Assembly: GCF_003862495.1 (NCBI RefSeq)
Contig: NZ_RRCH01000028.1
Location: 1 to 64,000, forward strand
From: Halocatena pleomorpha
Lineage (GTDB): Archaea; Halobacteriota; Halobacteria; Halobacteriales; Haloarculaceae
Length of the DNA: 64,000 nt
Direction: 5' to 3'
The notes under the pieces were generated by a model, which was given only the letters and a program-made list of their open reading frames with translations, made no database searches and was not told where the DNA came from. Position numbers and translations under genes: made by a program. Within the stretch, counting starts at the first letter, position 1; the number at the start of each line of letters is the position of its first letter. Of the stretch, positions 19,921-59,725 are shown one piece after another.

Positions 19921-20112
19921 ATGGATCACGTCTTTGCGCGCGACGGCGAGAGCGGAACGAAGCCGCTTACAATCCACTGGGCGCTCAGGCAACTCAACCA
20001 GCGCCTCCGCGAGCGTCCGGATCCGTTGTCTGGGATCGATCGAGAGCGTCTCGAATCCTTAATTCGGGGCGCGGACACCGCCCGATCGGTGGAACCACAG
20101 CCATCCCCATGA
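19921..20112 (+). CDS. small conserved-looking protein coupled to rtcA
   Basis: This 63-residue, charged, helical protein (HWALRQLNQRLRERPDPL then IDRERLESLIRGADTA) ends in a TGA that overlaps the rtcA ATG by the 4-base ATGA junction at 20109-20112. The tight overlap and protein-like composition argue that it is real and translationally coupled to rtcA. I do not recognise a family. A TATAAG motif near 19907 lies only 12-14 bases before the ATG, so the promoter assignment is unclear. The overlap suggests a role in, or shared regulation with, RNA end processing, which is inference. Confidence 0.55.
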   Translation: MDHVFARDGESGTKPLTIHWALRQLNQRLRERPDPLSGIDRERLESLIRGADTARSVEPQPSP

Positions 20113-29529: not shown

Positions 29530-29727
29530 CAGAAGCTTCGGCAATGGAACGGTGTTGTTCTCAAGACAGTCTCATGTGGATAACGCGCCTGAACTAGTAA
29601 CTCAAGCCGCCAATTTTCGGTGGTTGAGACTAAGAACGGTGCTGTCTCCTCGTACTGTAGTACAGGGGTTTTGCACCTGAAATTTAAAATAAGCCGCCTT
29701 TTTATTCACGCAGAGATATTGATACCC

Positions 29728-42236: not shown

Positions 42237-42479
42237 AATCACGCTCTATTACAAAGGCAGTACCAAATAAAAATACCTATTGTTGTCGACTCCTAATACT
42301 CTATTCGAACAGATACAGCACAGCTGTCACACTACACTGGTCTCAGCAGGCATGTTACGGTAAGATCGTTTTTTGAAACCAACCGAGACATTCGAGGCCG
42401 GCAAGATAGTTGTTTCTGACTTCGTTCGTATTGAGATCCGAGAAGTCAGATACAGTTGGTGCAAAAAAGTTCTGCTGAG

Positions 42480-45194: not shown

Positions 45195-46529
45195 TCACCG
45201 CCTCTGGTAGGCTTCGAACTCTTTACCGAAGGCTAGGAAGTATCCGGCACCGAGACCCCCGAGAACAGCAGCGACCGTAAAGGCCACTTCGGGGCTGACG
45301 AATTCCCAGAGATAGCCACCGACAGCGGCACTCGGGATGACGAGTGTATTTCGGATCAGATAGTAGGTACCGGTCACGCGTCCGCCGGCACCCTGTTCAG
45401 CAGGACCAACGATTAACGCCTTGTGCGACGGCAAGCCAGCAAACCGCAGTCCGGAAAACGCGAAGACGAGAACCAGCGCGGTCGCGTTGGCCGGCGTGTT
45501 GATGAGGAGAATCGGGAAGATTGCGTACACCGCAAATCCAAGCCCAACGATCGGTTTCAGGCCGATGTATTCGGCAGCCTTGGCCGCGGGAGCCATGATG
45601 AGCAACGCGATCAACATCTCAACCCCGAGCAGATAGCCGAAGAAGGCAGCTGGCGAAAGATCGACTGCGTACGAATACCCCGCGATCGACACGGTCGTCT
45701 CGACGCCGACCTGTAGAATCTGCGTGACCACCAGCACGAAGAAGACATACACCATGCCGTTTGCGAAGCGGACGATCGTATCACCGAGCAACAGCGGACG
45801 GAGTGGATCGGGCATCTCTCGGAGATCCTGCCTGACCTGCTCGATTCCCGCGAAGGTGCTGCCGATATCATCGGCACTAGGATCATACAGGTAGTGCTGA
45901 ACAACCGTGCCGACGAGTCCGAATCCGACCGCCACCACGAGAACATACTGGAAGCTCACCGTGAACGCCGGGTGGAACCCGATAAGGACGGCAGCAGCCA
46001 CCGGACCGATGAGGAAGGCAGTCCGGCGAAACGTCTCAGTGCTGGCGAAGCCAGCTGCGAGCCGTGAGGGATCGGTCGCTTGCTTGACAACAGCGAAGGT
46101 CGCGCCGAGACCGAACGACTTCCACGCTTGTGCGAGAATCAGACCGACGAAGATCCACAGCCACGGCTCGATGGATACCCCTGCGATCGTGAACGCGCCG
46201 ATGTTCGGGGCGACCAGCCAGACAGCGAATCCGATCGTCGAGACCAATCCGAACACGGTGAGGGCATACCGTGAGCCGATCCGATCGGAGACCGCCCCAC
46301 CCGGATACGGATAGAGAGCCGAAATGATGTTACTGAACGTCCCGAACAGTCCGACCACGAACCCCGACGCACCGAGCGTCACCATGTACTCCGGAAGGAA
46401 CCGATTAGTCATCTGAAAACCGAGACTGAACGCGAACATCGCCACAGAGAGGACGAGTACGTCGCGTTCGAGCGCGAAAAGCTGACGAAATGGATCAAGA
46501 ATTCCAACGGACTCGCGCTCTGTAGTCAT
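45195..46529 (-). CDS. MFS transporter
   Basis: This 444-residue major facilitator has twelve hydrophobic segments. AVSDRIGSRYALTVFGL is the loop 2-3 signature. A long central cytoplasmic loop (about 205-230, YDPSADDIGSTFAGIEQVRQ) separates the halves. The second half has PAAKAAEYIGLKPIVGLG and LPSHKALIVGPAEQGAGGRV. The overall pattern (RYALTVFGL, LRFAGLPSHKA) recalls the haloarchaeal multidrug/sugar-like MFS group, but no substrate can be inferred. It is upstream-independent: Rad50 is on the same strand but 208 bases before it, and the small ORF beyond its 3' end is convergent. Confidence 0.87.
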   Translation of the reverse strand: MTTERESVGILDPFRQLFALERDVLVLSVAMFAFSLGFQMTNRFLPEYMVTLGASGFVVGLFGTFSNIISALYPYPGGAVSDRIGSRYALTVFGLVSTIGFAVWLVAPNIGAFTIAGVSIEPWLWIFVGLILAQAWKSFGLGATFAVVKQATDPSRLAAGFASTETFRRTAFLIGPVAAAVLIGFHPAFTVSFQYVLVVAVGFGLVGTVVQHYLYDPSADDIGSTFAGIEQVRQDLREMPDPLRPLLLGDTIVRFANGMVYVFFVLVVTQILQVGVETTVSIAGYSYAVDLSPAAFFGYLLGVEMLIALLIMAPAAKAAEYIGLKPIVGLGFAVYAIFPILLINTPANATALVLVFAFSGLRFAGLPSHKALIVGPAEQGAGGRVTGTYYLIRNTLVIPSAAVGGYLWEFVSPEVAFTVAAVLGGLGAGYFLAFGKEFEAYQRR

Positions 46530-46737: not shown

Positions 46738-49458
46738 TTAGATCCCAGCAAGCAGGTCAGCACTCTCTACCTCAGCACGCGATCGATTCGTGCTGGGATC
46801 CTGTGACACAGCGATTCGTTCATCAGCTGAATCAACGACTTCTCGCGAGTGGGTAACCACGATTGTCTGATCAACGCCCAACTGTCGCATCCGTTCGACG
46901 AGCTCATTGAGTCGACCGACGTGTGTCTCATCGAGATGGACTGTCGGCTCATCAAGAATGAGCGGCGGCAACGGCGCTTTGCCATCGATACCTTCAGCGA
47001 GAAGCTGGTAGATCGCACACCGGAGTGCGAGATTAAACAGTGCTTGTTCACCCCCTGAGAGTTCGTCCGGATCGAGGGTCTCACCGCTCTTCTCATGGAC
47101 GGTAATCTCATAGGCGCGATCGAGTTCGATGTAAGCGTATGCGTCGTTTTCGTAGATAAGCCCGAAGATACTGTTCAACAGCTGTTCGAGATATGAGACG
47201 TTTGCCGCACGAAGCGTCTCGCGCAACCCACTATACATCTGATTCACGGCTTCGAGTTGTGCGACGGCGTCAGCGAGTGTCGTCTGCTGCCGTCGAAGCT
47301 CCGCAGCGCGCGAACGTTCAGTATCTAAATCATCGAGCTTTCCTTGTATCTGGCCTCGGTGGGCAGTCAAGCTGTCCCGCTCGTCAGCTTTCTCCGCCCG
47401 TTCAGCTTTCAACTGCTTGATCGTCTCGTTGGCGTCCGCGGCTTGCTCTTCGAGTAGCTCGATACGTTCTTCATCGATCGTTGCCGTAAGTTCTGCTCGG
47501 CGCTCAGAGAGACGCGTCACACGCGACGCGCGGGTATCTTTCGTTTCCTGCGCACTGGCGAGGAGTTCCGCTTTCGTCTCTCGTTGCTCGTGGGCAGCAA
47601 CGTAGGCGTCTAACGCGTCGTCGAGTTGCTGAAGCCGTTCCTGCTCTTCTTCTACCGTTGCCAGTTCATCTCTGACTGCTGTAAGTGTGTTTTCTAACGC
47701 TGTCCGCTCAGCGGTAAGTCGGTCGGCACGAGCTGTCCACTGCTCCGCAGCGACAGACTTCCGTGTTGCGAGGTCCTGTTTCTCTTGGGCCTCTTGTGTA
47801 AGCCGGTCGATACCATCTTGTATCTCAGCAATCCGGTGGGTAACGGTCTGCTGTTCACGGGTGTACTGGGCCACATCACTCTCAGCCTGTTGGAGTGCTT
47901 CCGCAGTGTCCTCTTTAGCAGTCAGTGCCGCAATACGCTCTTCTAGCGCAGCGAGTTCACTTTCTAGTGTTGCCTTTTTCTCCCGCTTGTCGTCGAGTTG
48001 AGTCACAGCGGGTGCTGCATCGACGGCTTGGCCGCATTCGGGACAGCGTCCCTCATCGATGAGTGACTCAGCGTGGCTGATCTGCTCTTCGAGAGCGTTG
48101 ATGTTACCCGTGAGTCGAGTCTGTTCCTGAGTTGCATTCGAAAGTTCAGTCTCAATACGCTCGGCGTATGCGTCTGCGTCTCCGAATTCGACGGCATCGG
48201 GAGCCGCATCAAACTGAGCTTTCGTCGTCTCAATGGCCTCCTGCAGCTTGGTTTTTCGCGCTTTTTTCTCCGCGAGGTCCTCGGTCCGCCGCTTCTCAGC
48301 ACGAGTAGCAGCTGATTCTGCACGCGCCTCCGCGTCGGAGGCTTGCGCTTGAAGCTCATCTGCTCGGTCGGCAAACGATTCAGCGTCGTACTGCATCCTC
48401 TCAATCGTTGCTTCGAGTTGGGTTATCGTCTCACGGATCTCTGTTCGTTCTGTTTCACGCTCATTGAGGGCGGTATTGAGCCTTGATCGATCGATCGTCT
48501 CTGGATCGATGAGATCGTCGAAGGTGTCACCGATAGATACATCTACAGCTGCAAGACTGTTGGCCACCGCTGCCCGACGTGCTTCCAGTTCAGTGGCGGC
48601 CTCGTTAAGCTGGTTCTGTCGTTGTGACACAATCTCCGTAGCCTCATCAAGGGTATCCTGTGCTGTCCTCAGTTTTTCGGAGACCTCTTGCAATTCGGAT
48701 CGTTTCTGGTCAAATGCCTCAAGTTGTTGGTGTGCATCATCATGCTGGTCTTTAGCAGTAGTGAGATCGTCATCAAGATCTTCGATAGCTGTAGAGACTG
48801 ATTCAAGTCGCTTGTTCACCCGTGCAAGCTCGGCTTCGAGATCTTGCTCTTCAAGATGTTCGATGCGCTCTTCGACGGTCTGGAGTTCGGTTTGTTTCTC
48901 ATCACGAGCATTCCGTGCCCCTCGAAGCGCGTGTTCCATCCGTTCCCGGTAGGTCTTGAGCTTCCCGAGTTGGAGAAGTCGGTCGATGATGTTCTGTCGG
49001 TCTGCTGGCGATGCGTGGATCAGCCGCGTGATGTCTCCCTGACGAACGTATGAGCAGTTGAGAAACGCCTCTGCGTCCATTCGCATGATCCGCTGAATCT
49101 TCTGTTGGACTTCACTCTCTTTCTCGTAAATGTCAGATGGTGTCTCGAACTCGACATCAGAATAGACGTACTCAGACGATGGCGGATCGCTGATGCGGCG
49201 GTAGATACGGTATTCAGTCTCATTGTGGATGAACCAGAGTTCTACCTCTAGTTCAGTCATCCCCGTTGTGATAGCATCCTCGCGGCTCTTGCCGGTTTGA
49301 AACGCGTCAGTACCATACAACGCGAAGTAGCAAGCCTCAAGCAGTGTTGATTTTCCGGCACCATTCACGCCGTGAACAACCGTGATGCCCGTATCGAACG
49401 ACAAGTCCTCTTCCTCGTAACACTTCCAGTTCTTCAGCCGAAGTCGTGTGAATATCAT
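46738..49458 (-). CDS. rad50: DNA double-strand break repair ATPase Rad50
   Basis: This 906-residue SMC-like ATPase has Walker A GVNGAGKST (residues 30-38), two long coiled-coil arms (about 180-450 and 480-720), and the zinc hook RCPECGQ near residue 473. At its C-terminus are the signature ELSGGEQALFNLAL (about 801) and Walker B LILDEPTVHLDE (about 838). With Mre11 it tethers and processes DNA double-strand breaks; in haloarchaea it is also known to restrain homologous recombination. The mre11 gene lies 35 bases upstream on the same strand, so the two are one operon. The length is typical of haloarchaeal Rad50. Confidence 0.95.
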   Translation of the reverse strand: MIFTRLRLKNWKCYEEEDLSFDTGITVVHGVNGAGKSTLLEACYFALYGTDAFQTGKSREDAITTGMTELEVELWFIHNETEYRIYRRISDPPSSEYVYSDVEFETPSDIYEKESEVQQKIQRIMRMDAEAFLNCSYVRQGDITRLIHASPADRQNIIDRLLQLGKLKTYRERMEHALRGARNARDEKQTELQTVEERIEHLEEQDLEAELARVNKRLESVSTAIEDLDDDLTTAKDQHDDAHQQLEAFDQKRSELQEVSEKLRTAQDTLDEATEIVSQRQNQLNEAATELEARRAAVANSLAAVDVSIGDTFDDLIDPETIDRSRLNTALNERETERTEIRETITQLEATIERMQYDAESFADRADELQAQASDAEARAESAATRAEKRRTEDLAEKKARKTKLQEAIETTKAQFDAAPDAVEFGDADAYAERIETELSNATQEQTRLTGNINALEEQISHAESLIDEGRCPECGQAVDAAPAVTQLDDKREKKATLESELAALEERIAALTAKEDTAEALQQAESDVAQYTREQQTVTHRIAEIQDGIDRLTQEAQEKQDLATRKSVAAEQWTARADRLTAERTALENTLTAVRDELATVEEEQERLQQLDDALDAYVAAHEQRETKAELLASAQETKDTRASRVTRLSERRAELTATIDEERIELLEEQAADANETIKQLKAERAEKADERDSLTAHRGQIQGKLDDLDTERSRAAELRRQQTTLADAVAQLEAVNQMYSGLRETLRAANVSYLEQLLNSIFGLIYENDAYAYIELDRAYEITVHEKSGETLDPDELSGGEQALFNLALRCAIYQLLAEGIDGKAPLPPLILDEPTVHLDETHVGRLNELVERMRQLGVDQTIVVTHSREVVDSADERIAVSQDPSTNRSRAEVESADLLAGI

Positions 49459-49493
49459 ATCTTTTTGGTAGCTGCGGGTGTATGTGGTAGGTA

Positions 49494-50822
49494 TCAGTCG
49501 GTCATGTCAGATTGCGCTTCTGTTTCTGTGTCCTCGATTGCTTTGAACGTCTGTTGCACGGTTGATTGCTCGCTGTCGGTCGTCGCTCCGTTACGCTCTG
49601 TCTCGCTGGTAGTGTCGCTCTCTTCGGGAACAAGCCCAGTAGCAGCATCGGGTGACTCAATCTCAGCCGTCCGCTCGAACGCCTCAGGTTCATGATCGAT
49701 TCGGTCACGGAAAGTCGACTTCGTGAGGGCGTCTAAGTTCGTCTTTGCTGGGGCTTCCGGTCCCGCAGTATCCCGGACCATCTCTTCCACTTCAGCGACA
49801 GCAGCGCTCAGTTCCATGTCAGCGAGCTGTTCCCGCACTGCTGCGTCCGGATCAACGAACGAGACATCGTAGTCGACATCAAGATCCTTCAGTTTGCGGC
49901 GATCACTCGTCCGGGCCACGAGTGCTCCGTGGTCACGCGCGTACTGTTCGATGGCTGCCGGAGAGATATCCTCCGAATCATCACCCTCGATGATGGTGGC
50001 AACAACAGCGTCGGTCACGTCGTGCTCGTCGAGTTCCGTTTTGATACGTTCAGCACCTTGCCCCGGTTCGAGTGTCGTTTCAATATAGATGTGGGGACGT
50101 GTCGTTAGCGGCGTCTGTTCGATACCGAAGGCGGTATGGCCAGACTGCTCGTGCTGTACAGTCACAACGTTGTAGACGCGGTCATCTCGTTGGGTAACGG
50201 CCGTCCGCTCGGTTGATCCGGCGTACGTGAGGACGATCTCCTCGTCGGTCCACCGGCGGACCTTCGGTGTGTGATCATCCCCAAGCAGCGCTGCATCGAA
50301 TTTGACAGGGCTTTGCGCGATGATATCACCAACGTTCCACTCTCCGTGGGAAGACAACTGGTCGAAAAGACCATGCGCGACCAAGACTGCATGCGAGGCG
50401 TCGTGAGGAGTGAATGTGTAGTCGAGGTGGTCCCGTCTGGCTGCTGCAACGTAGTGTTGACCGTAAAAGGCGATGTCGTTGATCACGACAGGATCATCTC
50501 CGAGACGAACTGCGAGATCCATGTCTGAGAAGATCTGTATCCAGTCCGTGTCCTGAGTCCCATCATGGTTCCCAACGACTGCGAGAAAAGGAATGTCGGC
50601 GTCTCCGAGCCGATTTAGTTGCTGTACTGCCCCTCGAATCGCAGCCGTCCCCGGACGACTCGTATTAAAGAGATCGCCTGCGTGGATAACGCCTGCGACA
50701 TCGTTCTCGATCGCAGCGTCGACGACCTGCTGGAACGCGTCGAGATAGTCCGCTTGTCGTTCTGGTCGGTTGTATTGGGTGTATCCGAGATGTGTATCTG
50801 CTGTGTGGATGAATGTGGACAT
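49494..50822 (-). CDS. mre11: DNA double-strand break repair nuclease Mre11
   Basis: This 442-residue metallophosphoesterase reads FIHTADTHLGY (D9, H11), HAGDLFN (D50), VVGNHDGT (N85-H86-D87), VAHGLF and LLGDDHTP. These are the dimanganese ligands of Mre11; the last block carries Asp-Asp-His where many relatives have Gly-His-Ile-His. The C-terminal third (from about residue 340) is acidic and probably disordered, with a predicted Rad50-binding segment. It provides 3'-5' exonuclease and endonuclease activity. It stands between the large nuclease-helicase gene (137 bases upstream) and rad50 (35 bases downstream), all on the minus strand. Confidence 0.94.
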   Translation of the reverse strand: MSTFIHTADTHLGYTQYNRPERQADYLDAFQQVVDAAIENDVAGVIHAGDLFNTSRPGTAAIRGAVQQLNRLGDADIPFLAVVGNHDGTQDTDWIQIFSDMDLAVRLGDDPVVINDIAFYGQHYVAAARRDHLDYTFTPHDASHAVLVAHGLFDQLSSHGEWNVGDIIAQSPVKFDAALLGDDHTPKVRRWTDEEIVLTYAGSTERTAVTQRDDRVYNVVTVQHEQSGHTAFGIEQTPLTTRPHIYIETTLEPGQGAERIKTELDEHDVTDAVVATIIEGDDSEDISPAAIEQYARDHGALVARTSDRRKLKDLDVDYDVSFVDPDAAVREQLADMELSAAVAEVEEMVRDTAGPEAPAKTNLDALTKSTFRDRIDHEPEAFERTAEIESPDAATGLVPEESDTTSETERNGATTDSEQSTVQQTFKAIEDTETEAQSDMTD

Positions 50823-50959
50823 GGCGGATTAGAGACCTCCCCGGAGCTCATGATAGATGTGAATCAGTCTCGATTCTATCATACTAGTAGTGTTTCTTCT
50901 CTATGCATTTATTTTGCTCGCACATCATGGCTCTAGAACACGACTAATCAGGTGAGAAC

Positions 50960-53900
50960 TCATTCTGGGTGGTACACCTGAAGTGATGCATCATCGAATG
51001 CAAATCCGATATCGAGATCAGTCGGCACCAATTCTGTGACAGTTCCTTCCCAGGCTGGGACGGTGGTAAGGGCGTCCATGTGAGTGAACAGTCGCTTCCA
51101 GAGATCTGCCTGATCATAGACATCTGCCTCTTGTGGAATCAGTCGAAACACCTCTTCGCTGGCAACAACGATGAGTTTGTGCTGCATCCGCGACATAGCA
51201 ACAGTCAATCGGTTTGGATTAAGGATGAATTCGTCCTCGGTCTGGAGAAACCCCGGCTCCGATGCTGTGGCTGAGACGAGGATACACTCCCGTTGTCCTC
51301 CCTGATACCGTTCGACAGTGTCCACATCAAACCCTCCATCGAGACGTGCTTGGATAAGTCCTCGTTGTGCGTTGTGCGGTGTCACAATTCCGGTCGCGTC
51401 CCCGTCTCCAACATGTTGTGAGACAGCCGCCGCGATCGCTGCCTCCACGGGATTCGATTGCCGACTTGTATCATCATTGTGAACAACTAGGACAAATGGA
51501 GCGTCTGGTTGGAGCATTGCGGCCAACCCCTCCGTCACGGGGTTCGGCGTGCCAAGGGTCTTTGTTTGGTTTGAGGTGTACGGGATACCATCCTTCGCAT
51601 AAACGTTGTTAGCGAGGAACGCCGTCACCGCCTCATGACAGCGGTGGGTTTCAGCAAGTTGTGTGAGAGGGATCGTCGCGGTTCCCGTGAGTTCGGTCCC
51701 GTACGTTTCGTCGAGTTCTGCAACATCGTCCCCTCGAAGTGCTCGAAACCAATCGAGCGTCGAGAGGTGCGGGGCGTACTCCTGGATCGGGCGGCGGTCC
51801 TCATGATCCCACTCGTGTTGGCGGACTGGTGCCATCTGTCGGTGATCCCCAGCGATAAGCACCTGTGATGACTCATGCAGCCATGCGCTACAGAGGGCGA
51901 ACGATGGTAGGCGCATCATACTCGCTTCGTCGATCGCCAGCAGATCAAAGTACGTTTCGCCCTGTGCAACGCGCTCTTCAGCGCTGCTAGCATCGGCAAG
52001 CATGTCGATGAGCTTATACAGGCGTGCAGGTGTCGCAAACACCAGCGTGTGCGGTTGCGGTTGTGGCGTCTCCGACACGCGGGTTTGCTTGACTGGCTCG
52101 GCGTACCGACGAAGTCGTTGCACGACCATCTCTCGTGCGTCGCTTTTCTCGTGGTAGTTGAGATAGGTGATATAAGGGTGGGGATCTTCTGGCGGTTCGT
52201 TTGTTAGACGAACGAGTTCGACATTCTCATACGGGGTGGTATCGGTGTCTGGGTGCTCGACGAACGCCTGAACGGTGTCAGCAACATCCGCAAGGACTTC
52301 ATCAACAGCTTTGTTCGACTCGCCAGAGATCGCACCGACAAGTGGATGATCGCGCTGTGCCCAGGCGTAGAGACGGGCGACGACAGCGAGGGCAAGGGAA
52401 CCTCCGGTTTTGCCAGTTCCTGGCGGGCCTTGCAAGAGCGAAAACTGCGCGCGTGTTTCATGAATGAATGCACGTTGTCGCGGGCTTGGCAGCGTCTTTG
52501 GGCCAAGGTTGGTTTTACACCACGCGGTGAACGCCTCGACCTCGGCACGGAAATCCGTGTTCGAAATCGAGTCGGTTATCTGTCCTGTTGCCAAGGCCTC
52601 GAGCCGCCCGAGAAGTGGGTGTTGATCCCCTGCCGTCTCCAAGACGTTGAACGCGCGCTGGGAGAGCAAGTCATCAGTCTGCGGATCCAAAATGAGAATC
52701 GTCTGCTGATCGAAGACGAGTGTGTTATTGTCACCGTCAGTATCATCGACTGCCCAGGAGCGATGATAGCGGGTGAATTCGTGCTCCTGTGTGAATGAAG
52801 GAACTGCTGATAGTTCGATGTAATTGCTGTCCACATCGAGTACGTCGATAGTGACGCCCGGTCCGCGTTCGAGATGGTTCGGATGCGCACTTCTGGCAGG
52901 TTCTCCAGAGCGTGTGAGTTCGTTTACAACCATCCACGATCCGCCCGTCGACCCTTCGGCTGCTTTCTTTCGACACGCGTTTGCGATCCGCTCGTGGTCG
53001 TCGGGGAAGAGTTGGTCGTAGAGGAGTCGTCCCTCTACCCGGAGTGATCCGTCGTCTTGTTGTTCAGCCGCCCTGATAACGAGGGGTATCGCGTCGCCAG
53101 ACTGGATACGCTGACGGATCGGCTGTGAAAGATGGTCTACTGTCTCATTCCGCGCAGTGTAATGCTCAAGATGGAGGACATCTGTAAGAGCACCAGCCAG
53201 ATCTGATTCGCCAACTGTGAACGTCTCCAGTGTCTCTCGTCGAAGCGGCCGTTTGGTGAGTGAATCGTTCCGATACCGAATTCCCCGCTCAATGTGTGCT
53301 ACACACTGAGCGAGATACTCTCCAAGAGCTGTAATGTCTTCAGGAACAATGCGTGTCGTCTGTTGGTCCCGATCGACCCACAGGAACGGATCGAGCGACT
53401 GATAGACGTCATAATCCGCTATCAGATCTTTGACCCAGTTTTCTGTGAGCTGTCCGAGAGCGGCCCAGATGTACTCCAGCGGGATCTGAGCTCCGCCACG
53501 AAGGCGCGATGGGTACCAGCCGTCCGCCGCCTCATCAGTATGAAGGTGGAGTCCAGACTCGCCAGTCCGGTATCGGACGGTGTAATCGAATAGTTTGAAG
53601 CGAAAGGCATCTCGGAGGTTCTCGATGTGAGTCCCGTCACTCCGGGTGAATTCCCACTCGTAGTTCGGTACTCGATCAGCGGGTGGACTGAATAACTGTT
53701 TGACTGGCAGAAGCCCTAGATTCGGGATGGGCATGGCGAATCGAGAGCGGATCTCATCCTGAACGATCGAGACCATTGCTTGGTCAGGATGAGTATCGCC
53801 CGTCGCGTCTCGGAGGCTGAGCAGATCCTGCAGTGCGGTGCCAGCGGTTGTATCGTGGCGCGTTGCCGCCTCCATGAGAGCGGTTCGTTCGTGGCTGGTA

Positions 53901-55312
53901 TAGATATAGAAGTGGATGGGGACACGCTCCATTCGACCGAGCGAGTCAGCGATGTCATGGATAGTCGCGGTCAGTTGCTCCCAGAAGCCGTCTAACACGG
54001 CTCGCTCCTCGATATGACTCGCGTCTGTCTCCATCGAGAGATCAGGGGCGATCTCGGAGACGTGGCGCGCCTCGTCGCTGTTAGTTGCCGTCACGTAGGC
54101 GGCACACATGACGACCCGGTCGCGTCGATTGTCATGTTGAACATTGAGGTAGATACGGATAAGCTCTCCCCGAGCGACAGGAAGTTCATCTGGTTGGTAA
54201 GGGGGATCATCCGCGGGCAGCGAGCCATCACCGCTACCCAGCAGATACGGCGGTGCCCCATTCCCAGATGAGGTGTTCGTCCCGTGATCGTGTATCTCTC
54301 CTAACATGGCGTGCGCTCGCTGGACGTACTGGTGAATCACCGGTCCGAGTTCCGGATCATTCCGCAACTCGTTATATATCTCGTTTCGAGCCATGAGCTC
54401 CGTGTCGTAATCGTAGGGTCGCGGGTCATCCTCCGGATAGGCCAGTTCCGCAAGGTCATGAATCGTTTCGAGATCATACTCCGCGAGGCGGTTCTGCTCA
54501 CCGATCGACATACCGAGAGCGGCTGTCGAGAGTTCTTCTACGGCGTCTGTGTAGCATGCTTCTTTGTAAACACAGGACCCGCATTTCGACCCAAGTTGAT
54601 ATCGTACCGTTTCTGGCTCTTGTCGGTGAAGCTCGTCAAATCGTCCATCTGCCTGTAGGAGGTTTCGCACATCGAGTTCTCGCGGCGTCACGTCGAAGGC
54701 AGGAAGATCCTCGGGTGCGCCACTCGTGAGGTCCGTTTCACGGGTGATGATACCGCCTTCGAGAGTCCACGAATAGGCAGGTGAAAGCTGATCGAGAAAT
54801 TGCCGCAAGAGGGTGGTGTACACTGCGACTTGAATTTGTTGGTACGTTTTCTCTTCGTGAGACGCTTTGATATCGAGAACACGGATTCGAATCCCATCAG
54901 CTGTCGGCCAGACAGCGATAATATCAGCGTCACCCGCGACAGGCCACGCTTCGATACGCAACCCCAGTCGTGACTGAAGAAGGAGTGTTGGCTGATCGCT
55001 GGGTGGACGGTCTGCGACAGTGGCAAAGACGTTCCTAAGCCGGGACTGGGAGTCGTTCCAGTCGTTGATCTCTTCGAAATTACTTTCGGAGTGCGCAAAC
55101 TGAGACAGTTCGTCACCGACAGCTGTCTCGAATGCACCCCCATCCCTGGCGAATAACAACGAAAGCGGCTCAAACGCCTCCTTCCAGTCGCGTTCGTTAC
55201 GACGCTCGGATTCGTAGTCTGTGAAGTGGAATTTGTGATAGCGAGGACAGCCATTCAAGGAGATGAACTCACCGATAGCAGATGGATCAACGAATGGACG
55301 ATCAAGGTTCAT
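50960..55312 (-). CDS. Dna2-like RecB nuclease/UPF1-type helicase fusion
   Basis: This 1450-residue protein starts with a RecB-type PD-(D/E)xK nuclease. D128/D130 lie in GDADIIAVW, D147 and K149 in RVLDIKAS, and QQIQVAVY follows. Cys22 plus C244-x2-C247-x5-C253 form the Fe-S-type four-Cys pattern of Dna2, AddB and Cas4. A middle region near residue 387 (IYLNVQHDNRRDRVV, later HFYIYTSHERTALMEAA) recalls the RNase H-like domain of TM0106-family proteins, apparently without its acidic residues. The C-terminal half is an SF1B/UPF1-like helicase with Walker A QGPPGTGKT (about 960), Walker B AIDEASM (about 1127), HRQMAPV and NRLTVAMSRM (about 1371). It lies directly upstream of mre11-rad50, which suggests DNA end resection; that role is inferred. 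Confidence 0.88.
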   Translation of the reverse strand: MNLDRPFVDPSAIGEFISLNGCPRYHKFHFTDYESERRNERDWKEAFEPLSLLFARDGGAFETAVGDELSQFAHSESNFEEINDWNDSQSRLRNVFATVADRPPSDQPTLLLQSRLGLRIEAWPVAGDADIIAVWPTADGIRIRVLDIKASHEEKTYQQIQVAVYTTLLRQFLDQLSPAYSWTLEGGIITRETDLTSGAPEDLPAFDVTPRELDVRNLLQADGRFDELHRQEPETVRYQLGSKCGSCVYKEACYTDAVEELSTAALGMSIGEQNRLAEYDLETIHDLAELAYPEDDPRPYDYDTELMARNEIYNELRNDPELGPVIHQYVQRAHAMLGEIHDHGTNTSSGNGAPPYLLGSGDGSLPADDPPYQPDELPVARGELIRIYLNVQHDNRRDRVVMCAAYVTATNSDEARHVSEIAPDLSMETDASHIEERAVLDGFWEQLTATIHDIADSLGRMERVPIHFYIYTSHERTALMEAATRHDTTAGTALQDLLSLRDATGDTHPDQAMVSIVQDEIRSRFAMPIPNLGLLPVKQLFSPPADRVPNYEWEFTRSDGTHIENLRDAFRFKLFDYTVRYRTGESGLHLHTDEAADGWYPSRLRGGAQIPLEYIWAALGQLTENWVKDLIADYDVYQSLDPFLWVDRDQQTTRIVPEDITALGEYLAQCVAHIERGIRYRNDSLTKRPLRRETLETFTVGESDLAGALTDVLHLEHYTARNETVDHLSQPIRQRIQSGDAIPLVIRAAEQQDDGSLRVEGRLLYDQLFPDDHERIANACRKKAAEGSTGGSWMVVNELTRSGEPARSAHPNHLERGPGVTIDVLDVDSNYIELSAVPSFTQEHEFTRYHRSWAVDDTDGDNNTLVFDQQTILILDPQTDDLLSQRAFNVLETAGDQHPLLGRLEALATGQITDSISNTDFRAEVEAFTAWCKTNLGPKTLPSPRQRAFIHETRAQFSLLQGPPGTGKTGGSLALAVVARLYAWAQRDHPLVGAISGESNKAVDEVLADVADTVQAFVEHPDTDTTPYENVELVRLTNEPPEDPHPYITYLNYHEKSDAREMVVQRLRRYAEPVKQTRVSETPQPQPHTLVFATPARLYKLIDMLADASSAEERVAQGETYFDLLAIDEASMMRLPSFALCSAWLHESSQVLIAGDHRQMAPVRQHEWDHEDRRPIQEYAPHLSTLDWFRALRGDDVAELDETYGTELTGTATIPLTQLAETHRCHEAVTAFLANNVYAKDGIPYTSNQTKTLGTPNPVTEGLAAMLQPDAPFVLVVHNDDTSRQSNPVEAAIAAAVSQHVGDGDATGIVTPHNAQRGLIQARLDGGFDVDTVERYQGGQRECILVSATASEPGFLQTEDEFILNPNRLTVAMSRMQHKLIVVASEEVFRLIPQEADVYDQADLWKRLFTHMDALTTVPAWEGTVTELVPTDLDIGFAFDDASLQVYHPE

Positions 55313-55579
55313 GTGTATTTCATCGTGTCTCTACTCCTCAGGCCGAACGCAAATATAACTTGATGAACTACTTCTCTCAAGGAGCCGCTGAAGGCGAGTG
55401 GGAGGGCTTTCCGCCTCGACAACGCGGCTTGTAGCTACGTCATATATTGTCCGCTTGCACGAGTGTCCAGTCGAACGAGGCTTACACGGCTATACACCGA
55501 CGATTTGCTCACTCAGAAAATCAGCAGCGTCGTTTTGCTGTCCCAGGTCTCAGATTACGGTACATTACTTTCACCAGCC

Positions 55580-57364
55580 ATGACTGACTATCTACTCGCG
55601 TTCAAACCCGCGATCGGGCTGTACGGCCAACACGATCCAAGCGCCGTACTCTTTGAAGATGGGCGTGCCGTCTTCGGTGTCGAAGAAGAGCGATACACGC
55701 GGGAGAAACACGCGACTGACACCTTCCCGAGACGCGCGATTCAAGCCTGCCTTGACTACCGGGAGCTGACGCTGCCGGACCTTGATCGTATTCTTCTCCC
55801 GTATGAGCCGCGGCTCCGGGGCGAAATCGTTTCTCACTACGTCACTGACGCACTCAAAGCGCCCGGTGTCGCGCGGAAACTCTTCACACTGGAGGAAACG
55901 CTCATCACACACGTCCGGAGTCGGCTCGTCCCGACGCGGCAGATCGAGAATCGCCTTGAGTCGATCGGCACACCGGTCCCGCCGATCGAGACGATCCCCC
56001 ATCACCGCTGCCATGCCGCGAGCGCGTTCTACCCGTCGGGCTTTGATGAGGGTGTCGTCCTTACGATTGACGCGAAAGGAGAGTACGACTCAACAGTCGT
56101 TTGGCGCGCCGACGCCGACGGCCTGACGCGAGTACACACGTACGAACACCCAAACAGCCTCGGGCTTTTCTTCGCGGTTATCACGGAGTACCTCGGCTAT
56201 CGGATGTTCAACGGTGAGGGGAAAGTGATGGGGCTGGCTCCCTACGGCGAGGATAACCCGGAGATCGAGAACGTCCTGCGCGACCTGATCGATGTTGGTG
56301 CTGACTACGATGTTACTGCGTTGACAAAAAGCTGGGGGACCGACCACGGCGTCGAAACCCTCGAAGAAGCGTTCGATCGACCCCAAAACGAGACGCCCGG
56401 AGAGTTCAATCAGTGGGAGAAAGATCTCGCGTACGTTGCCCAGAAACTACTCGAAGAGACGGTTGTGAACATCGCGGAGGCGGCCGTTGATCCGCTTGGC
56501 ACAACGAACGTCGCGATCGCAGGCGGTGTCGCGCTGAACTGCAAACTGAACAAGCGCGTTCGTGAGTCACCGCTGATCGACGATGTCTTCGTCCAGCCGG
56601 TTGCCCACGACGCGGGCCTCGCACTCGGTGCGGGCTGGGCACGGCAGCGTCCGGCGGCTGTTGACCGCCAGACCGATATCTACCTTGGACCCGAATACGG
56701 CACCGAGGAAATCCGGTCGACTCTCAAGACGAACAAGCTTGAGTACGCAGAACCGGACGACCTTGAGCGGTACGTTGCTGAACGGCTCGCGGACGGCAAC
56801 CTCGTCGGCTGGTTCCAGGGGCGGATGGAGCTCGGACCGCGGGCGCTTGGGGCCAGAAGCATCCTCGCTGATCCCCGCACCGCCGCGTCTCGTGATCGGG
56901 TGAATCGCTTCGTCAAACACCGCGAGGAGTGGCGCCCGTTCGCGCCATCGATGCTTGAGTCGGCCGCCGAGGAGTATCTGATCAACGGTGGTCCCGCACC
57001 GTTCATGATCGACGCCTACGATGTCCGACCCGAGAAGACCAAGGACCTTGCGGCCGTCTTGCATCCGGCTGACGACTCGACACGCCCACAGACCGTCCGT
57101 GAGGACCAGCATCCGCGCTACCATCGCCTCATCTCTGAGTTCGCTGCTCTCACCGGCGTGCCGGTTCTCCTCAACACCTCGTTCAATGACCACGCTGAGC
57201 CGATCGTCCGGACGCCGACGCAGGCGATCAAGGACTTTTACGGCATGGGTCTCGACGTGCTCGTTCTTGAGGACTTCGTGATCGAAAAGGGAACGGTGAA
57301 AACAGATCACGGTTCGGAACTGATGATCGAAGAGAGCGATGAGCTGAATCCGATCTCAAAGTAG
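55580..57364 (+). CDS. carbamoyltransferase, NodU/HypF-C type
   Basis: This 594-residue protein reads LAFKPAIGLYGQHDPSAVLF and FGVEEERYTREKHATDTFP. HHRCHAASAFYPSGFDEG is the metal-binding His cluster, TIDAKGEYDSTVVWR follows, and YRMFNGEGKVMGLAPYGE is the conserved core. The C-terminal domain is seen in GRMELGPRALGARSILADPR. This is the NodU/CmcH carbamoyltransferase family, which moves carbamoyl phosphate onto a hydroxyl of a sugar or antibiotic. ATG 55580 gives the family N-terminus; upstream 39 codons are open but atypical. Haloarchaeal members are thought to modify surface polysaccharides; no glycosyltransferase is adjacent. Confidence 0.9.
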   Translation: MTDYLLAFKPAIGLYGQHDPSAVLFEDGRAVFGVEEERYTREKHATDTFPRRAIQACLDYRELTLPDLDRILLPYEPRLRGEIVSHYVTDALKAPGVARKLFTLEETLITHVRSRLVPTRQIENRLESIGTPVPPIETIPHHRCHAASAFYPSGFDEGVVLTIDAKGEYDSTVVWRADADGLTRVHTYEHPNSLGLFFAVITEYLGYRMFNGEGKVMGLAPYGEDNPEIENVLRDLIDVGADYDVTALTKSWGTDHGVETLEEAFDRPQNETPGEFNQWEKDLAYVAQKLLEETVVNIAEAAVDPLGTTNVAIAGGVALNCKLNKRVRESPLIDDVFVQPVAHDAGLALGAGWARQRPAAVDRQTDIYLGPEYGTEEIRSTLKTNKLEYAEPDDLERYVAERLADGNLVGWFQGRMELGPRALGARSILADPRTAASRDRVNRFVKHREEWRPFAPSMLESAAEEYLINGGPAPFMIDAYDVRPEKTKDLAAVLHPADDSTRPQTVREDQHPRYHRLISEFAALTGVPVLLNTSFNDHAEPIVRTPTQAIKDFYGMGLDVLVLEDFVIEKGTVKTDHGSELMIEESDELNPISK

Positions 57365-57695
57365 CGCGGCGTCCCTGAAATCCAGTCGGCGGCCGCAGTA
57401 TTCTACACATAGAGCAAGTCGTCGCACTCAGACGTACAATCTTCCTGAATCGTTTTCGGGGTAAGCGGTGTCGCTGGTCACCGAAAGACTCGGACAATAT
57501 CACTGCTATCTCCGACAGATAAATTTCTCGAAACTACCCGTGAGAGCGCTCTATCAGGGCTGACACGGCACTTTGGTGAGCTACAAGTGACTCGAACTGC
57601 GATGAGTATCGCCGTATCGCACAGCGGAATACGTCTAACCCACAAACATTCTAGAACCCACGACTTCGTGTCGTCTCAATTGTATTCGAACTAGT
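57365..57695. other. 331-base intergenic region
   Basis: No gene seen between the carbamoyltransferase and the TauE permease, both on the plus strand. No clear TATA box was assigned; TTGTATTCGAACTAGT (57679-57694) directly precedes the ATG at 57696. Confidence 0.4.
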
Positions 57696-58619
57696 ATGAG
57701 TACACCAGAATCCACGGTCGATGTCGAACAGTTTCTCACCAACCTCCTCAAGTTCAACTACCGCGAAGTCACGATGGTCGGTGCGGCACTGGCCGTTCTC
57801 GTCGCCTCGATCGCGTTCTTCCCGGGAGTCGAGAATGTCGGGCAGGGGGTTCAGTCCGAGCTCTCGATCGGCTTGCTTGCCGGACTAGTGCTGGTGGCGA
57901 TCGTTGCCGGCGTTGTCAAGGGAATGACTGGCTTCGGCTACTCGCTTATCATGACGCCGATCTTCGCGTCGGTGATCGATCCAACCGCCGCCATTGTTGT
58001 TCTGGCGATTCCGCCCTGGATGCTCAACATGTTCCAGATCGCAGAAACCGGAACGGGGCGGTCGTTCGTTCGCGAGGAGTGGGCGCTTTTGCTGCTTGCG
58101 GTCGTCGGGACCATCACCGGTGTCGCAGCGCTGGCGGCGCTCAGCGCCGGACCACTCGTCCCCTTCGTTATCGGTCTCGTCCTCCTCGGCTACGTCACCT
58201 TTCAGGCCGTCCAGAACTTCGTCACAGTCACAGAAGCCCACCACCCGTTCGCTCTCGGCGCGGCTGGCTTCTCCCAAGGCTTTCTGCTCGCGCTTGCTAA
58301 CCTCGGGCCGCTGCTGCCAGCGTACTTCCACACGTTCGAGCGAGACACCGAGCGATACATCGGCGGGCTGTCGATGGTACTCGGAACAATTTTCACAGTG
58401 CGAATCGTCCAGATGGCGCTGTTCACCGACCTACTGACGACGTATCGGTTGTGGCTCGGTTCGGTGATCGCGGTGGTTACGATCGTTGGCCTGCTCTCGG
58501 GCACGTATCTCCGACGCCTTGAGTTCGACGAGCGGACGTTCAACTGGTTCGTCGTCGGACTCCTCTTTGTCATCTCGCTCAACATCTTCCGGAACACCGT
58601 GCCGGCGCTGTTCTTCTAA
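57696..58619 (+). CDS. TauE/SafE family sulfite or organic-anion exporter
   Basis: This 307-residue protein has an unusual N-terminal soluble lead (about 1-25) followed by eight hydrophobic helices. Family marks are GVVKGMTGFGYSLIMTPIFAS in the first repeat and GFSQGFLLALANLGPLLPAYF in the second; the paired G-x-x-G-x-G-x-P half-repeats define TauE/SafE permeases. These export sulfite, sulfoacetate or related anions. It is followed by a GC-rich stem-loop that may end transcription. The neighbours are the carbamoyltransferase upstream and a convergent DUF7521/ArsR pair. Confidence 0.87.
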   Translation: MSTPESTVDVEQFLTNLLKFNYREVTMVGAALAVLVASIAFFPGVENVGQGVQSELSIGLLAGLVLVAIVAGVVKGMTGFGYSLIMTPIFASVIDPTAAIVVLAIPPWMLNMFQIAETGTGRSFVREEWALLLLAVVGTITGVAALAALSAGPLVPFVIGLVLLGYVTFQAVQNFVTVTEAHHPFALGAAGFSQGFLLALANLGPLLPAYFHTFERDTERYIGGLSMVLGTIFTVRIVQMALFTDLLTTYRLWLGSVIAVVTIVGLLSGTYLRRLEFDERTFNWFVVGLLFVISLNIFRNTVPALFF

Positions 58620-58624
58620 GAACG

Positions 58625-58643
58625 GCCCACGCTACGGGTGGGC
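58625..58643 (+). terminator. GC-rich stem-loop after the TauE gene
   Basis: GCCCAC-GCTACGG-GTGGGC forms a perfect 6-bp stem five bases after the stop codon. No T-run follows directly, so it may be an RNA-stabilising hairpin rather than a true terminator. Confidence 0.3.
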
Positions 58644-58809
58644 GTGGCTTCTGCTAGCGCTGCGTGACACGCCCGGCTTTTGAGCGACAGTCCAAGCTGT
58701 TCGGTAACGGTCTCCGTGCTGTCGTACTGCTTCGTGTTCGGAGCCGACCGTCACCGCGAGAAAGTTCAGGAATCCACCGGTCACGGCGCGGCGATCGCTG
58801 CCTGAGTTG

Positions 58810-59079
58810 TCATTGTTTCGTCAGCGATAGGAGAACGAGCATCATCCCGCTCGAAACGATGACCGCTTGAACGAAGGCGGCGGACGTGATTGTCGTTCCG
58901 AACGTGTGGTAGATGAGTCCCTCACAGACTGCGCCAGCACCGATGAAGACGAAGCCGCCGGAGACGTACAGCATTGGTTTCTGTCCACTCCGGCGATAGC
59001 CGTGGTACGCGAGGTATGCGACCACGAGGCTCAGGAAGAAGGTGATCAGTTTAACGAGCAAGAACGACGCGTCCATCAC
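58810..59079 (-). CDS. DUF7521 family small membrane protein
   Basis: This 89-residue protein has three hydrophobic helices (about 4-24, 36-58 and 66-86) and a short YHGYRRSGQKPML loop, as in the haloarchaeal DUF7521 family. It overlaps the upstream winged-helix regulator gene by four bases (ATGA at 59076-59079), so the two are translationally coupled. This regulator-membrane-protein pair is recurrent in haloarchaea as far as I know and its function is unknown; it may be a membrane sensor acting through the regulator. Confidence 0.82.
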   Translation of the reverse strand: MMDASFLLVKLITFFLSLVVAYLAYHGYRRSGQKPMLYVSGGFVFIGAGAVCEGLIYHTFGTTITSAAFVQAVIVSSGMMLVLLSLTKQ

Positions 59080-59471
59080 TCATCACCCCGGAGCCCGCGC
59101 CAGAGAGCCGTGAAGTTGTCGGCGAGTTCGTCGCGGGTCTCTATCGTCAGCGAGAGTTGGCCGTCGGTGATGTCGACGTGGAGCTCTGTGAGCGCCGTTT
59201 GGAATTCGCCTCGATGGGAACCGTCCGAATCGACGGTTCGGCGTTCCTCAATGAGGCCGTGGTCTTGCAGCGTCGATACGCGCCGATAGATCGTCGTGAG
59301 GGAGGCGTCACACTCCTCGCTGAGTGTCTTTGCGTTCTTCGGCCCGTGATCTGCGGCAAGAAGTATTTTCCGCGCGTACTCGTCCGCGAGGATCTGGAAT
59401 ATTTCCGCCGAATCCGAAGAGCCACCGTGTTGCACACGATAGTTCCGGTCGTTCAGCGGGAAATAGGCCAC
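59076..59471 (-). CDS. ArsR-like winged-helix regulator
   Basis: This 131-residue protein reads SAEIFQILADEYARKILLAAD, then NAKTLSEECDASLTTIYRRVSTLQDHGLIEERR, a typical winged helix-turn-helix with its wing. A short C-terminal beta-rich domain (FQTALTELHVDITDGQLSLTI) follows. A GTG at 59471 is the start in this frame. The C-terminal half belongs to a group found upstream of DUF7521 membrane proteins, with which it shares a 4-base overlap. DNA target and effector are unknown, and no metal-binding Cys cluster of true ArsR proteins is visible. Confidence 0.85.
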   Translation of the reverse strand: MAYFPLNDRNYRVQHGGSSDSAEIFQILADEYARKILLAADHGPKNAKTLSEECDASLTTIYRRVSTLQDHGLIEERRTVDSDGSHRGEFQTALTELHVDITDGQLSLTIETRDELADNFTALWRGLRGDE

Positions 59472-59725
59472 GATTTGCTAGTTTGGGGAATCACCGTAAG
59501 CCTCTTGACGTGAGTCGTTTCGGTGTCACGTTAGTCACATATCGGGGCGGGACAGGGCATTTCTACGCACGCACCATAGGTCTAACGAGTAATCCGTGAT
59601 GTCTTCGTGAGGTTCACCCGACTCACGAGGGGCGACCTGAAAGCTCCGGCTCTGATTTTCAAAGCCAGCAAATCGTCGAACTCGTTTACGTATCGGGGGA
59701 CATCATGAATCGTAACTGATCTCTA

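What the first reader, a model, noticed from the sequence alone, without database searches (positions are those of the whole stretch)
46738..55312. Dna2-like nuclease-helicase encoded beside Mre11 and Rad50
The sequence shows an N-terminal RecB-type nuclease with a C...C-x2-C-x5-C pattern, as in Dna2, AddB and Cas4, fused to a UPF1/Dna2-like SF1B helicase. It is 137 bases upstream of mre11-rad50 on the same strand. Known: archaeal mre11-rad50 is typically clustered with herA-nurA, and in eukaryotes Dna2 resects ends started by Mre11-Rad50. Inferred: this block is a self-contained DNA end-resection module in which the Dna2-like protein takes the HerA-NurA place, or an acquired defence/repair island.
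Basis: partly seen in the sequence, partly recalled or inferred. Interest (0 to 1): 0.7.

Follow-up and report, generated by a model that had tools for sequence, protein, structure and literature searches.

The report
Accessory Dna2-like plus Mre11-Rad50 module
A salt-loving archaeon carries an acquired three-gene block in which a relative of the eukaryotic DNA-end-chewing enzyme Dna2 sits beside a spare Mre11-Rad50 pair, and on plasmids of two other archaea the same trio is preceded by an Argonaute gene, which points to a DNA-end-processing defence or repair module that can now be tested.

Summary
On the minus strand a 1450-aa protein has a complete PD-(D/E)XK nuclease with the split Fe-S cysteine set (C22...C244-x2-C-x5-C253) and an SF1B helicase whose best solved fold match is Dna2. 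It is followed after 137 bp by mre11 and rad50 with intact motifs.

The linkage is not chance. The same gene order recurs on plasmids of Salinigranum rubrum and of genome G047, with proteins only 36-51% identical to the window's. There an Argonaute gene precedes it. Mre11 and Rad50 trees put the three pairs in one accessory clade; the Rad50 data reject membership in the canonical haloarchaeal clade.

The "takes the HerA-NurA place" reading fails as stated. The same genome has a complete mre11-rad50-nurA-X-herA operon on contig C27, and only 3 of 49 Dna2-like loci lie beside mre11-rad50. Most of those with a labelled neighbour lie with Dpd/BRIGADE-type base-modification genes, YprA/MrfAB helicases, Argonaute or Mrr nucleases.

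Best reading: a mobile accessory end-processing module, probably defensive, in a strain that has also lost mre11-rad50 (and polB) from the usual chromosomal site. Cooperation between the proteins is inferred, not shown.

The parts
50960..55312 (-). Dna2-like nuclease-helicase, 1450 aa (P0001)
   Evidence: ORF; PDDEXK_1 + AAA_11/AAA_12; best PDB fold match of the helicase half is Dna2 5ean E 4.7e-24
54554..54946 (-). PD-(D/E)XK nuclease core of the Dna2-like protein (residues 123-253; D130, D147-x-K149, Q161xxxY165)
   Evidence: Pfam PDDEXK_1 1.1e-4; residues conserved 37/37; fold matches EXO5/Cas4/AddB/Dna2
55247..55249 (-). Cys22, first Fe-S ligand
   Evidence: conserved in 36/37 homologues and in all 15 rows of A2
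54554..54583 (-). Cys244-x2-Cys247-x5-Cys253, other three Fe-S ligands
   Evidence: conserved in 36/37 homologues and in all 15 rows of A2
51143..52477 (-). SF1B (UPF1/Dna2-like) helicase motor, residues 946-1390; GPPGTGKT 962-969, DEAS 1128-1131, GDHRQ 1155-1159
   Evidence: AAA_11/AAA_12; motifs conserved 36-37/37; Dna2/UPF1 fold
50823..50959 (-). 137-bp gap between the Dna2-like gene and mre11; AT-rich stretch and GGAGGT before the mre11 ATG
   Evidence: read directly; similar gap length, about 127 and 138 bp, in S. rubrum and G047, no sequence conservation; separate mre11 promoter possible
49494..50822 (-). mre11, accessory haloarchaeal type (442 aa)
   Evidence: NF041030 Mre11_Halo 413 bits, below its 550 cut-off; motifs intact; accessory clade
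46738..49458 (-). rad50, accessory haloarchaeal type (906 aa)
   Evidence: NF041035 Rad50_Halo 778 bits, below its 1000 cut-off; Walker A, CPEC hook, SGGE, Walker B; AU test rejects the canonical clade
55313..55462 (-). upstream region of the Dna2-like gene, shared with the divergent carbamoyltransferase gene; TTATAT about 45 bp before the ATG
   Evidence: read directly; inferred promoter, not tested
45195..46529 (-). MFS transporter gene, left boundary of the block
   Evidence: MFS_1; 86% DNA match to a Halocatena salina plasmid where mre11-rad50 is absent beside it
55463..57364 (+). carbamoyltransferase gene, right boundary; start of a cargo block shared with haloarchaeal megaplasmids
   Evidence: Carbam_trans_N/C; 80-83% DNA matches to Natrinema/Natronococcus/Haloterrigena plasmids

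Best explanation
The block is a horizontally acquired accessory DNA-end-processing module. An accessory Mre11-Rad50 complex senses and trims DNA ends, hairpins or blocked breaks. The Dna2-like enzyme loads on the resulting single-stranded tail, unwinds with its SF1B motor and cuts the threaded strand with its Fe-S PD-(D/E)XK nuclease, so the DNA is resected or degraded. It lies on a low-GC replicon among plasmid cargo, and relatives with the same gene order lie on plasmids behind an Argonaute gene. The most likely biological role is therefore attack on foreign or broken DNA (plasmid or virus), with repair as a possible by-product. Shown: gene content, intact active-site residues, fold, conserved linkage, accessory phylogeny, a complete HerA-NurA operon elsewhere. 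Inferred: that the three proteins act together, the direction and outcome of digestion, and the defence role.
For: Intact nuclease, Fe-S and helicase residues in 36-37 of 37 homologues; Dna2 as top fold match. The same Dna2-like, mre11, rad50 order recurs on the Salinigranum rubrum plasmid NZ_CP026313 and across the ends of contig G047:C4, each preceded by an Argonaute gene. Protein identities to the window are 45% (Dna2-like), 42-51% (Mre11, the latter over a 223-residue fragment) and 36-37% (Rad50), so the linkage is old. Mre11 and Rad50 trees place window + S. rubrum + G047 together (93/79 and 98/96) in a six-member accessory clade (99/99, 100/98); the AU test rejects Rad50 grouping with Halocatena canonical (p 8e-7) or with all canonical (p 3e-4). 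The Dna2-like tree is congruent. No other genome of the genus carries the Dna2-like gene. Relatives lie with known or candidate defence genes: Que/TGT and YprA-type helicases (compare BRIGADE, PMC12458937), MrfAB, Argonaute, Mrr. The block matches no plasmid at DNA level while both flanks do.
Against: Only 3 of 49 Dna2-like loci have mre11-rad50 nearby. The closest relative of the window's Dna2-like protein (73%, Halalkalicoccus sp. FCH27 plasmid) has an Mrr-type nuclease gene in that place. The 137-bp gap could hold a separate mre11 promoter, and co-transcription was not tested. No activity, interaction or defence phenotype is known for any member. The window itself has no Argonaute; the genome's own Argonaute is on another contig with other partners.
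Confidence: 0.55

Rival explanations
1. Housekeeping replacement: the strain lost its chromosomal mre11-rad50 and this acquired pair, with the Dna2-like enzyme as long-range nuclease, now performs ordinary double-strand-break resection.
For: In G000 contig C5 the genes that flank mre11-rad50 and polB in the Halocatena relative G001 are contiguous, and mre11, rad50 and polB are missing there. No Mre11_Halo match above cut-off exists in the genome. The window pair is the only haloarchaeal-type Mre11-Rad50 found.
Against: A complete mre11-rad50-nurA-X-herA operon exists on C27. G003 and G005 of the same genus also lack the canonical pair but carry no Dna2-like gene, so the loss does not depend on this module. 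In G047 the module coexists with the canonical pair.
Confidence: 0.22
2. Independent neighbours: the Dna2-like protein is a stand-alone defence effector, and mre11-rad50 is merely one of several repair or defence genes that collect on such plasmids.
For: Most homologues have other neighbours or none of the labelled ones (20 of 49 had none of the query families nearby). The 73% relative lacks mre11-rad50. Gap of 127-138 bp in all three linked loci.
Against: Same order and strand in three loci from three genera, with congruent trees and proteins diverged to 36-51% identity; chance expectation about 0.04.
Confidence: 0.17
3. Replicon maintenance kit: the replicon that carries polB (29620-32421) keeps its own end-processing enzymes for its replication and recombination.
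For: The window holds the genome's only polB match; the S. rubrum plasmid has primase genes nearby.
Against: polB is 14 kb away and is not linked to the module in G047 (its polB is on contig C1). Most relatives with a labelled neighbour lie with modification or restriction genes.
Confidence: 0.06

Closest known systems
Dna2 (eukaryotic nuclease-helicase; with Mre11-Rad50 in end resection)
   Same: N-terminal Fe-S PD-(D/E)XK nuclease with one cysteine far upstream of the other three, C-terminal SF1B helicase; best PDB fold match
   Different: About 15% identity in the helicase half; an extra region of several hundred residues between nuclease and motor; in haloarchaea a sparse accessory gene (40 of 394 genomes), not a universal essential gene
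Bifunctional RecB family nuclease/helicase proteins as named by PGAP (TM0106-like nuclease plus SF1 helicase)
   Same: Two homologues in the family, on Salinirubellus and Salinibaculum plasmids, carry this name
   Different: TIGR03491 score 19 bits against a cut-off of 97; neighbourhood with mre11-rad50 not described for it in the papers read
Mokosh helicase MkoA / PLuB helicase-like protein / DpdJ
   Same: SF1 helicase part matches (PADLOC MkoA 1.4e-27, DpdJ 3e-21; NF040671 80 bits)
   Different: Match confined to the helicase part; NF040671 far below its cut-off of 999; no PLD or dpd gene in the window block
Haloarchaeal Argonaute-PLD (APAP) systems
   Same: Haloarchaeal Argonaute beside a nuclease, plasmid and virus restriction (PMC11442185); two linked relatives begin with an Argonaute gene
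   Different: Partner here is Dna2-like + Mre11-Rad50, not AgaP; the window block itself has no Argonaute
BRIGADE / Dpd base-modification defence systems
   Same: Several homologues lie among Que/TGT and YprA-type genes as described for BRIGADE (PMC12458937)
   Different: The window has no modification genes or YprA helicase beside the block
HerA-NurA with Mre11-Rad50 (thermophilic archaea)
   Same: A helicase plus nuclease next to mre11-rad50 (PMC7776575)
   Different: Unrelated helicase class, single fused protein, and a separate complete HerA-NurA operon in the same genome
Lamassu (Rad50-like defence)
   Same: Rad50-like end or structure sensor with a nuclease effector (PMC10586767); LmuB profile matches rad50 at 1.1e-41
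   Different: Here a full-length Rad50 with true Mre11; no LmuA or LmuC

Membership tests
Dna2-type nuclease-helicase | PD-(D/E)XK nuclease N-terminal to an SF1B helicase in one chain | tested here: met
   Pfam and motifs
Dna2-type nuclease-helicase | Four Fe-S cysteines, one far upstream of a C-x2-C-x5-C triplet | tested here: met
   C22, C244, C247, C253; 36/37 conserved; one cysteine far upstream of three, as described in PMC7311471
Dna2-type nuclease-helicase | Dna2 fold | tested here: met
   Helicase half: 5ean first, E 4.7e-24; nuclease half weaker, Dna2 among hits at E 3e-2
Dna2-type nuclease-helicase | Bound Fe-S cluster, nuclease, 5'-3' helicase, RPA response | not testable with these tools
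   needs purified protein
Dna2-type nuclease-helicase | Orthology to eukaryotic Dna2 | not tested
   no tree with eukaryotic sequences was made; 'Dna2-like' is used for architecture and fold only
TM0106 family RecB-like nuclease (TIGR03491) | Score above the curated cut-off | tested here: not met
   19.1 against 97.45 bits
PLuB helicase-like protein (NF040671) | Score above the curated cut-off | tested here: not met
   80 against 999 bits
Canonical haloarchaeal Mre11-Rad50 (NF041030/NF041035) | Score above the curated cut-off | tested here: not met
   413 against 550 and 778 against 1000 bits
Canonical haloarchaeal Mre11-Rad50 (NF041030/NF041035) | Groups with the vertically inherited pair of its genus | tested here: not met
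   AU p 8e-7 (Rad50), 0.021 (Mre11); Mre11 against all canonical p 0.069, not rejected
Mre11-Rad50 (superfamily) | Phosphoesterase motifs; Walker A/B, signature and zinc hook | tested here: met
HerA-NurA resection operon | herA and nurA next to mre11-rad50 | tested here: not met
   no herA or nurA beside the window block; such an operon is on C27 with a different mre11-rad50
Haloarchaeal Argonaute operons | Argonaute gene in the operon | tested here: not met
   absent in the window; present upstream in G047 and S. rubrum
BRIGADE / Dpd systems | 7-deazaguanine genes and YprA-type helicase beside the gene | tested here: not met
   none within 8 kb of the window block; present for other homologues
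Mokosh | MkoA/B or MkoC with PLD nuclease | tested here: not met
   helicase-only match; nuclease is PD-(D/E)XK

The most novel reading that the evidence does not exclude
A previously undescribed haloarchaeal immune module in which a guided Argonaute or another nicking enzyme makes the first cut and a dedicated Mre11-Rad50 plus Dna2-like enzyme then opens and digests the target: a prokaryotic counterpart of Mre11-Rad50/Dna2 resection used as a weapon, with the Argonaute lost or acting in trans in the window's strain.
Probability: 0.3. Interest if true: 0.8.

Novelty: new variant of a known kind. Interest (0 to 1): 0.6.

Why it matters
Every part is of a known kind, but I found no description of a Dna2-like enzyme encoded with Mre11-Rad50 in a prokaryote in the full-text searches made (open-licence papers only). 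If the proteins act together, a compact plasmid-borne system would reproduce the eukaryotic Mre11-Rad50/Dna2 pairing and could be studied in ordinary haloarchaeal laboratory strains. The Argonaute-linked versions would address how haloarchaeal Argonautes, which lack a helicase, get duplex DNA opened and destroyed. The strain's missing chromosomal mre11-rad50 also offers a natural test of whether accessory end-processing enzymes can take over housekeeping work.

Tried and rejected
1) HerA-NurA substitute: rejected as stated, because the genome carries a complete operon on C27. 2) Window mre11-rad50 as the displaced canonical pair of the genus: rejected for Rad50 (AU p 8e-7) and disfavoured for Mre11 (0.021); against all canonical sequences Mre11 is not formally rejected (0.069). 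Long branches (0.8) are a caveat. 3) Canonical pair missing only through an assembly gap: unlikely, since the flanking genes are joined inside contig C5; a misassembly cannot be excluded without reads. 4) Member of PLuB, Mokosh or TM0106 families: below cut-offs or helicase part only. 5) genome-contig scan with the family alignment: the patterns gave almost only bacterial helicases, two haloarchaeal loci, so it could not be used to tabulate neighbours. 6) viral-contig scan: 14 distant loci, used only as alignment rows. 7) Paper search for 'PLuB' found nothing relevant. 8) Profile search of the nuclease half against PDB sequences found nothing credible; the fold search was needed. 10) The gaps upstream of mre11 are alike in length but not in sequence. 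11) Middle region of the Dna2-like protein: AlphaFold confidence too low to name its fold.
Full report
WHAT IS THERE. The window is contig C21:1-64000 (contig 275,506 bp) of a 3.65-Mb, 96.6% complete haloarchaeal genome. Its genus is most likely Halocatena: contig C2 of same-genus genome G003 has the length of the Halocatena salina plasmid NZ_CP096020.1 (532,509 bp), and mre11-rad50-like genes lie at the corresponding place; this is inference. On the minus strand lie, in order of transcription, a 1450-aa ORF (50960-55312), mre11 (49494-50822) and rad50 (46738-49458). The gaps are 137 and 35 bp.

THE DNA2-LIKE PROTEIN. Pfam finds PDDEXK_1 (residues 123-253) and AAA_11/AAA_12 (946-1386). In an alignment of 37 full-length homologues, E62, D130, K149, Q161 and Y165 are invariant, residue 147 is D or E, the four cysteines (22, 244, 247, 253) are kept in 36, and the helicase residues tested are kept in 36-37 except R1335 (31 R, 6 K). 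K149, Y165 and the four cysteines are invariant even in 15 rows that include bacterial and viral-contig relatives at 14-28% identity. One cysteine far upstream of the other three is the layout described for AddB and DNA2 (PMC7311471). AlphaFold2 models: residues 1-930 have mean pLDDT 67, with the nuclease region mostly 80-90; residues 700-1450 have mean pLDDT 77, pTM 0.78. The helicase half matches Dna2 first in the PDB (5ean E 4.7e-24, then 5eax, IGHMBP2, UPF1). The nuclease half gives a consistent but weak list: EXO5, Cas4, SSO0001, MGME1, AddB, Dna2. 'Dna2-like' is therefore justified for architecture and fold; orthology with eukaryotic Dna2 was not tested.

MRE11 AND RAD50. Both have intact motifs but score below the curated cut-offs of the haloarchaeal equivalogs (413 of 550; 778 of 1000 bits), which 118 of 144 related genomes pass for Mre11. 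Careful trees place both proteins with the pairs from the S. rubrum and G047 plasmids (Mre11 93/79, Rad50 98/96), inside a clade of six accessory pairs (99/99 and 100/98) that includes pairs from genomes G049 (contig C3, Salinibaculum plasmid), G120 and G052. The AU test rejects Rad50 of the window grouping with the canonical Halocatena pairs (p 8e-7) or with all canonical pairs (p 3e-4); for Mre11 the values are 0.021 and 0.069. The window rows have long branches (0.8), so the exact position is less sure than the exclusion from the canonical clade.

THE LINKAGE. Homologues of the Dna2-like protein occur in 40 of 394 sampled genomes of the order and 30 of 95 genera, but in none of the six other Halocatena genomes. 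Two further loci have the window's gene order. On S. rubrum plasmid unnamed4 (NZ_CP026313.1) the annotated genes are Piwi protein, AAA-domain protein, metallophosphoesterase, AAA ATPase with the GO term double-strand break repair. On contig G047:C4 the same four genes run across the contig ends, which implies a circular plasmid. S. rubrum belongs to Haloferacaceae and G047 to the window's own family, so three genera and two families are involved. Identities to the window are 45% (Dna2-like), 42% (Mre11; 51% over the G047 fragment) and 36-37% (Rad50), while S. rubrum and G047 share 70, 69 and 58%. The Dna2-like tree joins the same loci (98), with the 73% relative from a Halalkalicoccus sp. FCH27 plasmid inside. 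That relative has an Mrr_cat nuclease gene where the others have mre11. The simplest reading is an old linked trio with the Mre11-Rad50 pair replaced once. A rough estimate gives 0.04 adjacent pairs expected by chance in 49 loci (it assumes about 1.5 such pairs and 3700 genes per genome).

OTHER NEIGHBOURHOODS. Of 49 loci, 3 have mre11 nearby, 8 QueC/D/E, 7 transglycosylase-like genes, 5 a 1579-aa YprA-type helicase set, 4 MrfA/MrfB-like pairs, 4 an Argonaute-like gene, 2 an Mrr_cat nuclease, and 20 none of the families I had queried. These labels come from BLAST with chosen queries, so they are lower bounds. The Que/transglycosylase/YprA setting resembles BRIGADE, reported only from halophilic archaea, where PD-(D/E)xK nucleases occasionally replace PLD nucleases (PMC12458937); I infer that some homologues belong to such systems. 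In the sister accessory pair of Salinibaculum sp. KK48, mre11-rad50 lies beside MrfA/MrfB-like genes and nucS. Both the Dna2-like gene and the accessory mre11-rad50 thus swap partners within one pool of repair and defence genes.

THE GENOME AROUND IT. The genome has mre11-rad50-nurA-X-herA in one direction on C27 (L035:6167-14108), beside a restriction-type gene and a large methyltransferase-like gene; motifs look intact by eye, which is not a test of function. NurA is found in 133 of 144 relatives, against the statement in PMC7776575 that H. volcanii lacks HerA and NurA; the NurA profile passes its cut-off in H. volcanii too, a discrepancy I did not resolve. In relative G001, mre11-rad50 and polB lie between conserved chromosomal genes. 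In G000 those flanking genes are contiguous on C5 and mre11, rad50 and polB are absent. polB is found only in the window. G003 and G005 of the genus also lack the canonical pair but keep polB at the chromosomal site, so loss of the canonical pair came without this module at least there. The window has lower GC (54%) than C5 (61%), and its flanks match plasmid cargo while the three-gene block has no DNA match. C21 is probably a plasmid or secondary replicon; this is not proven.

MECHANISM. From established knowledge, Mre11-Rad50 recognises ends, hairpins and blocked breaks and makes short single-stranded tails, and Dna2 threads such a tail through its nuclease and motor. The most likely mechanism is the same division of labour. 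Whether the outcome is repair or destruction is open; the company of the family and the plasmid setting favour destruction of foreign DNA. In the S. rubrum and G047 versions an Argonaute whose alignment keeps D, E, D positions (by eye) could supply the first cut. The window's strain has an Argonaute on C60 with UvrD/RecB-like partners, so action in trans is possible but unsupported.

LIMITS. No expression, interaction or activity data exist. Sampling was of 394 genomes of the order. Gene calls in fetched loci were made by a simple script. The literature library is partial.

Noticed in passing
window 29620-32421 (+): Family B DNA polymerase that is the only polB match in the genome; it is missing from its usual chromosomal place next to mre11-rad50 (L233), and G005:C6 carries an 89% second copy.
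   Followed up: partly
L035:6167-14108 (G000:C27), - strand: Complete mre11-rad50-nurA-X-herA operon in a haloarchaeon, at 52% GC, beside an Mrr-like gene and a large methyltransferase-like gene; G005:C6 has a related one (HerA 96%, others 39-47%).
   Followed up: partly
L204:6113-16317 (G000:C60): NgAgo-like Argonaute gene followed by a 347-aa protein, a UvrD_C-like protein, a PDDEXK nuclease and a UvrD helicase-nuclease, next to a YhaN/YhaO-like pair.
   Followed up: partly
L173:12001-17357 and L175:11905-18092: Dna2-like gene followed by an Mrr_cat restriction nuclease on Halalkalicoccus and Haladaptatus plasmids: mre11-rad50 appears to be exchanged for an Mrr nuclease.
   Followed up: partly
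L039, L040, L041, L194: Dna2-like genes beside MrfA-like helicase and MrfB-like exonuclease genes, sometimes with an Argonaute-like gene nearby.
   Followed up: partly
L230:2588-14973 (Salinibaculum sp. KK48 plasmid): Accessory mre11-rad50 beside MrfA/MrfB-like genes, an Hsp70 gene, a TFIIB-type gene and nucS.
   Followed up: no
L177, L185, L190 and others: Dna2-like genes among Que, transglycosylase, DUF6884 and large helicase genes, resembling BRIGADE/Dpd systems; the Dna2-like protein may be an undescribed regular member.
   Followed up: partly
Haloferax volcanii control genome: The NurA profile passes its cut-off in H. volcanii although PMC7776575 says HerA and NurA are absent there.
   Followed up: no
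window 55463-61621: Carbamoyltransferase, TauE-like and polysaccharide-deacetylase-like block shared at about 80-83% DNA identity with megaplasmids of Natrinema, Natronococcus and Haloterrigena.
   Followed up: no
window 20109-21143, 15275-16687, 40536-42242, 11748-12809: RNA 3'-phosphate cyclase, photolyase, a thermosome subunit and a DDE transposase in the same window.
   Followed up: no
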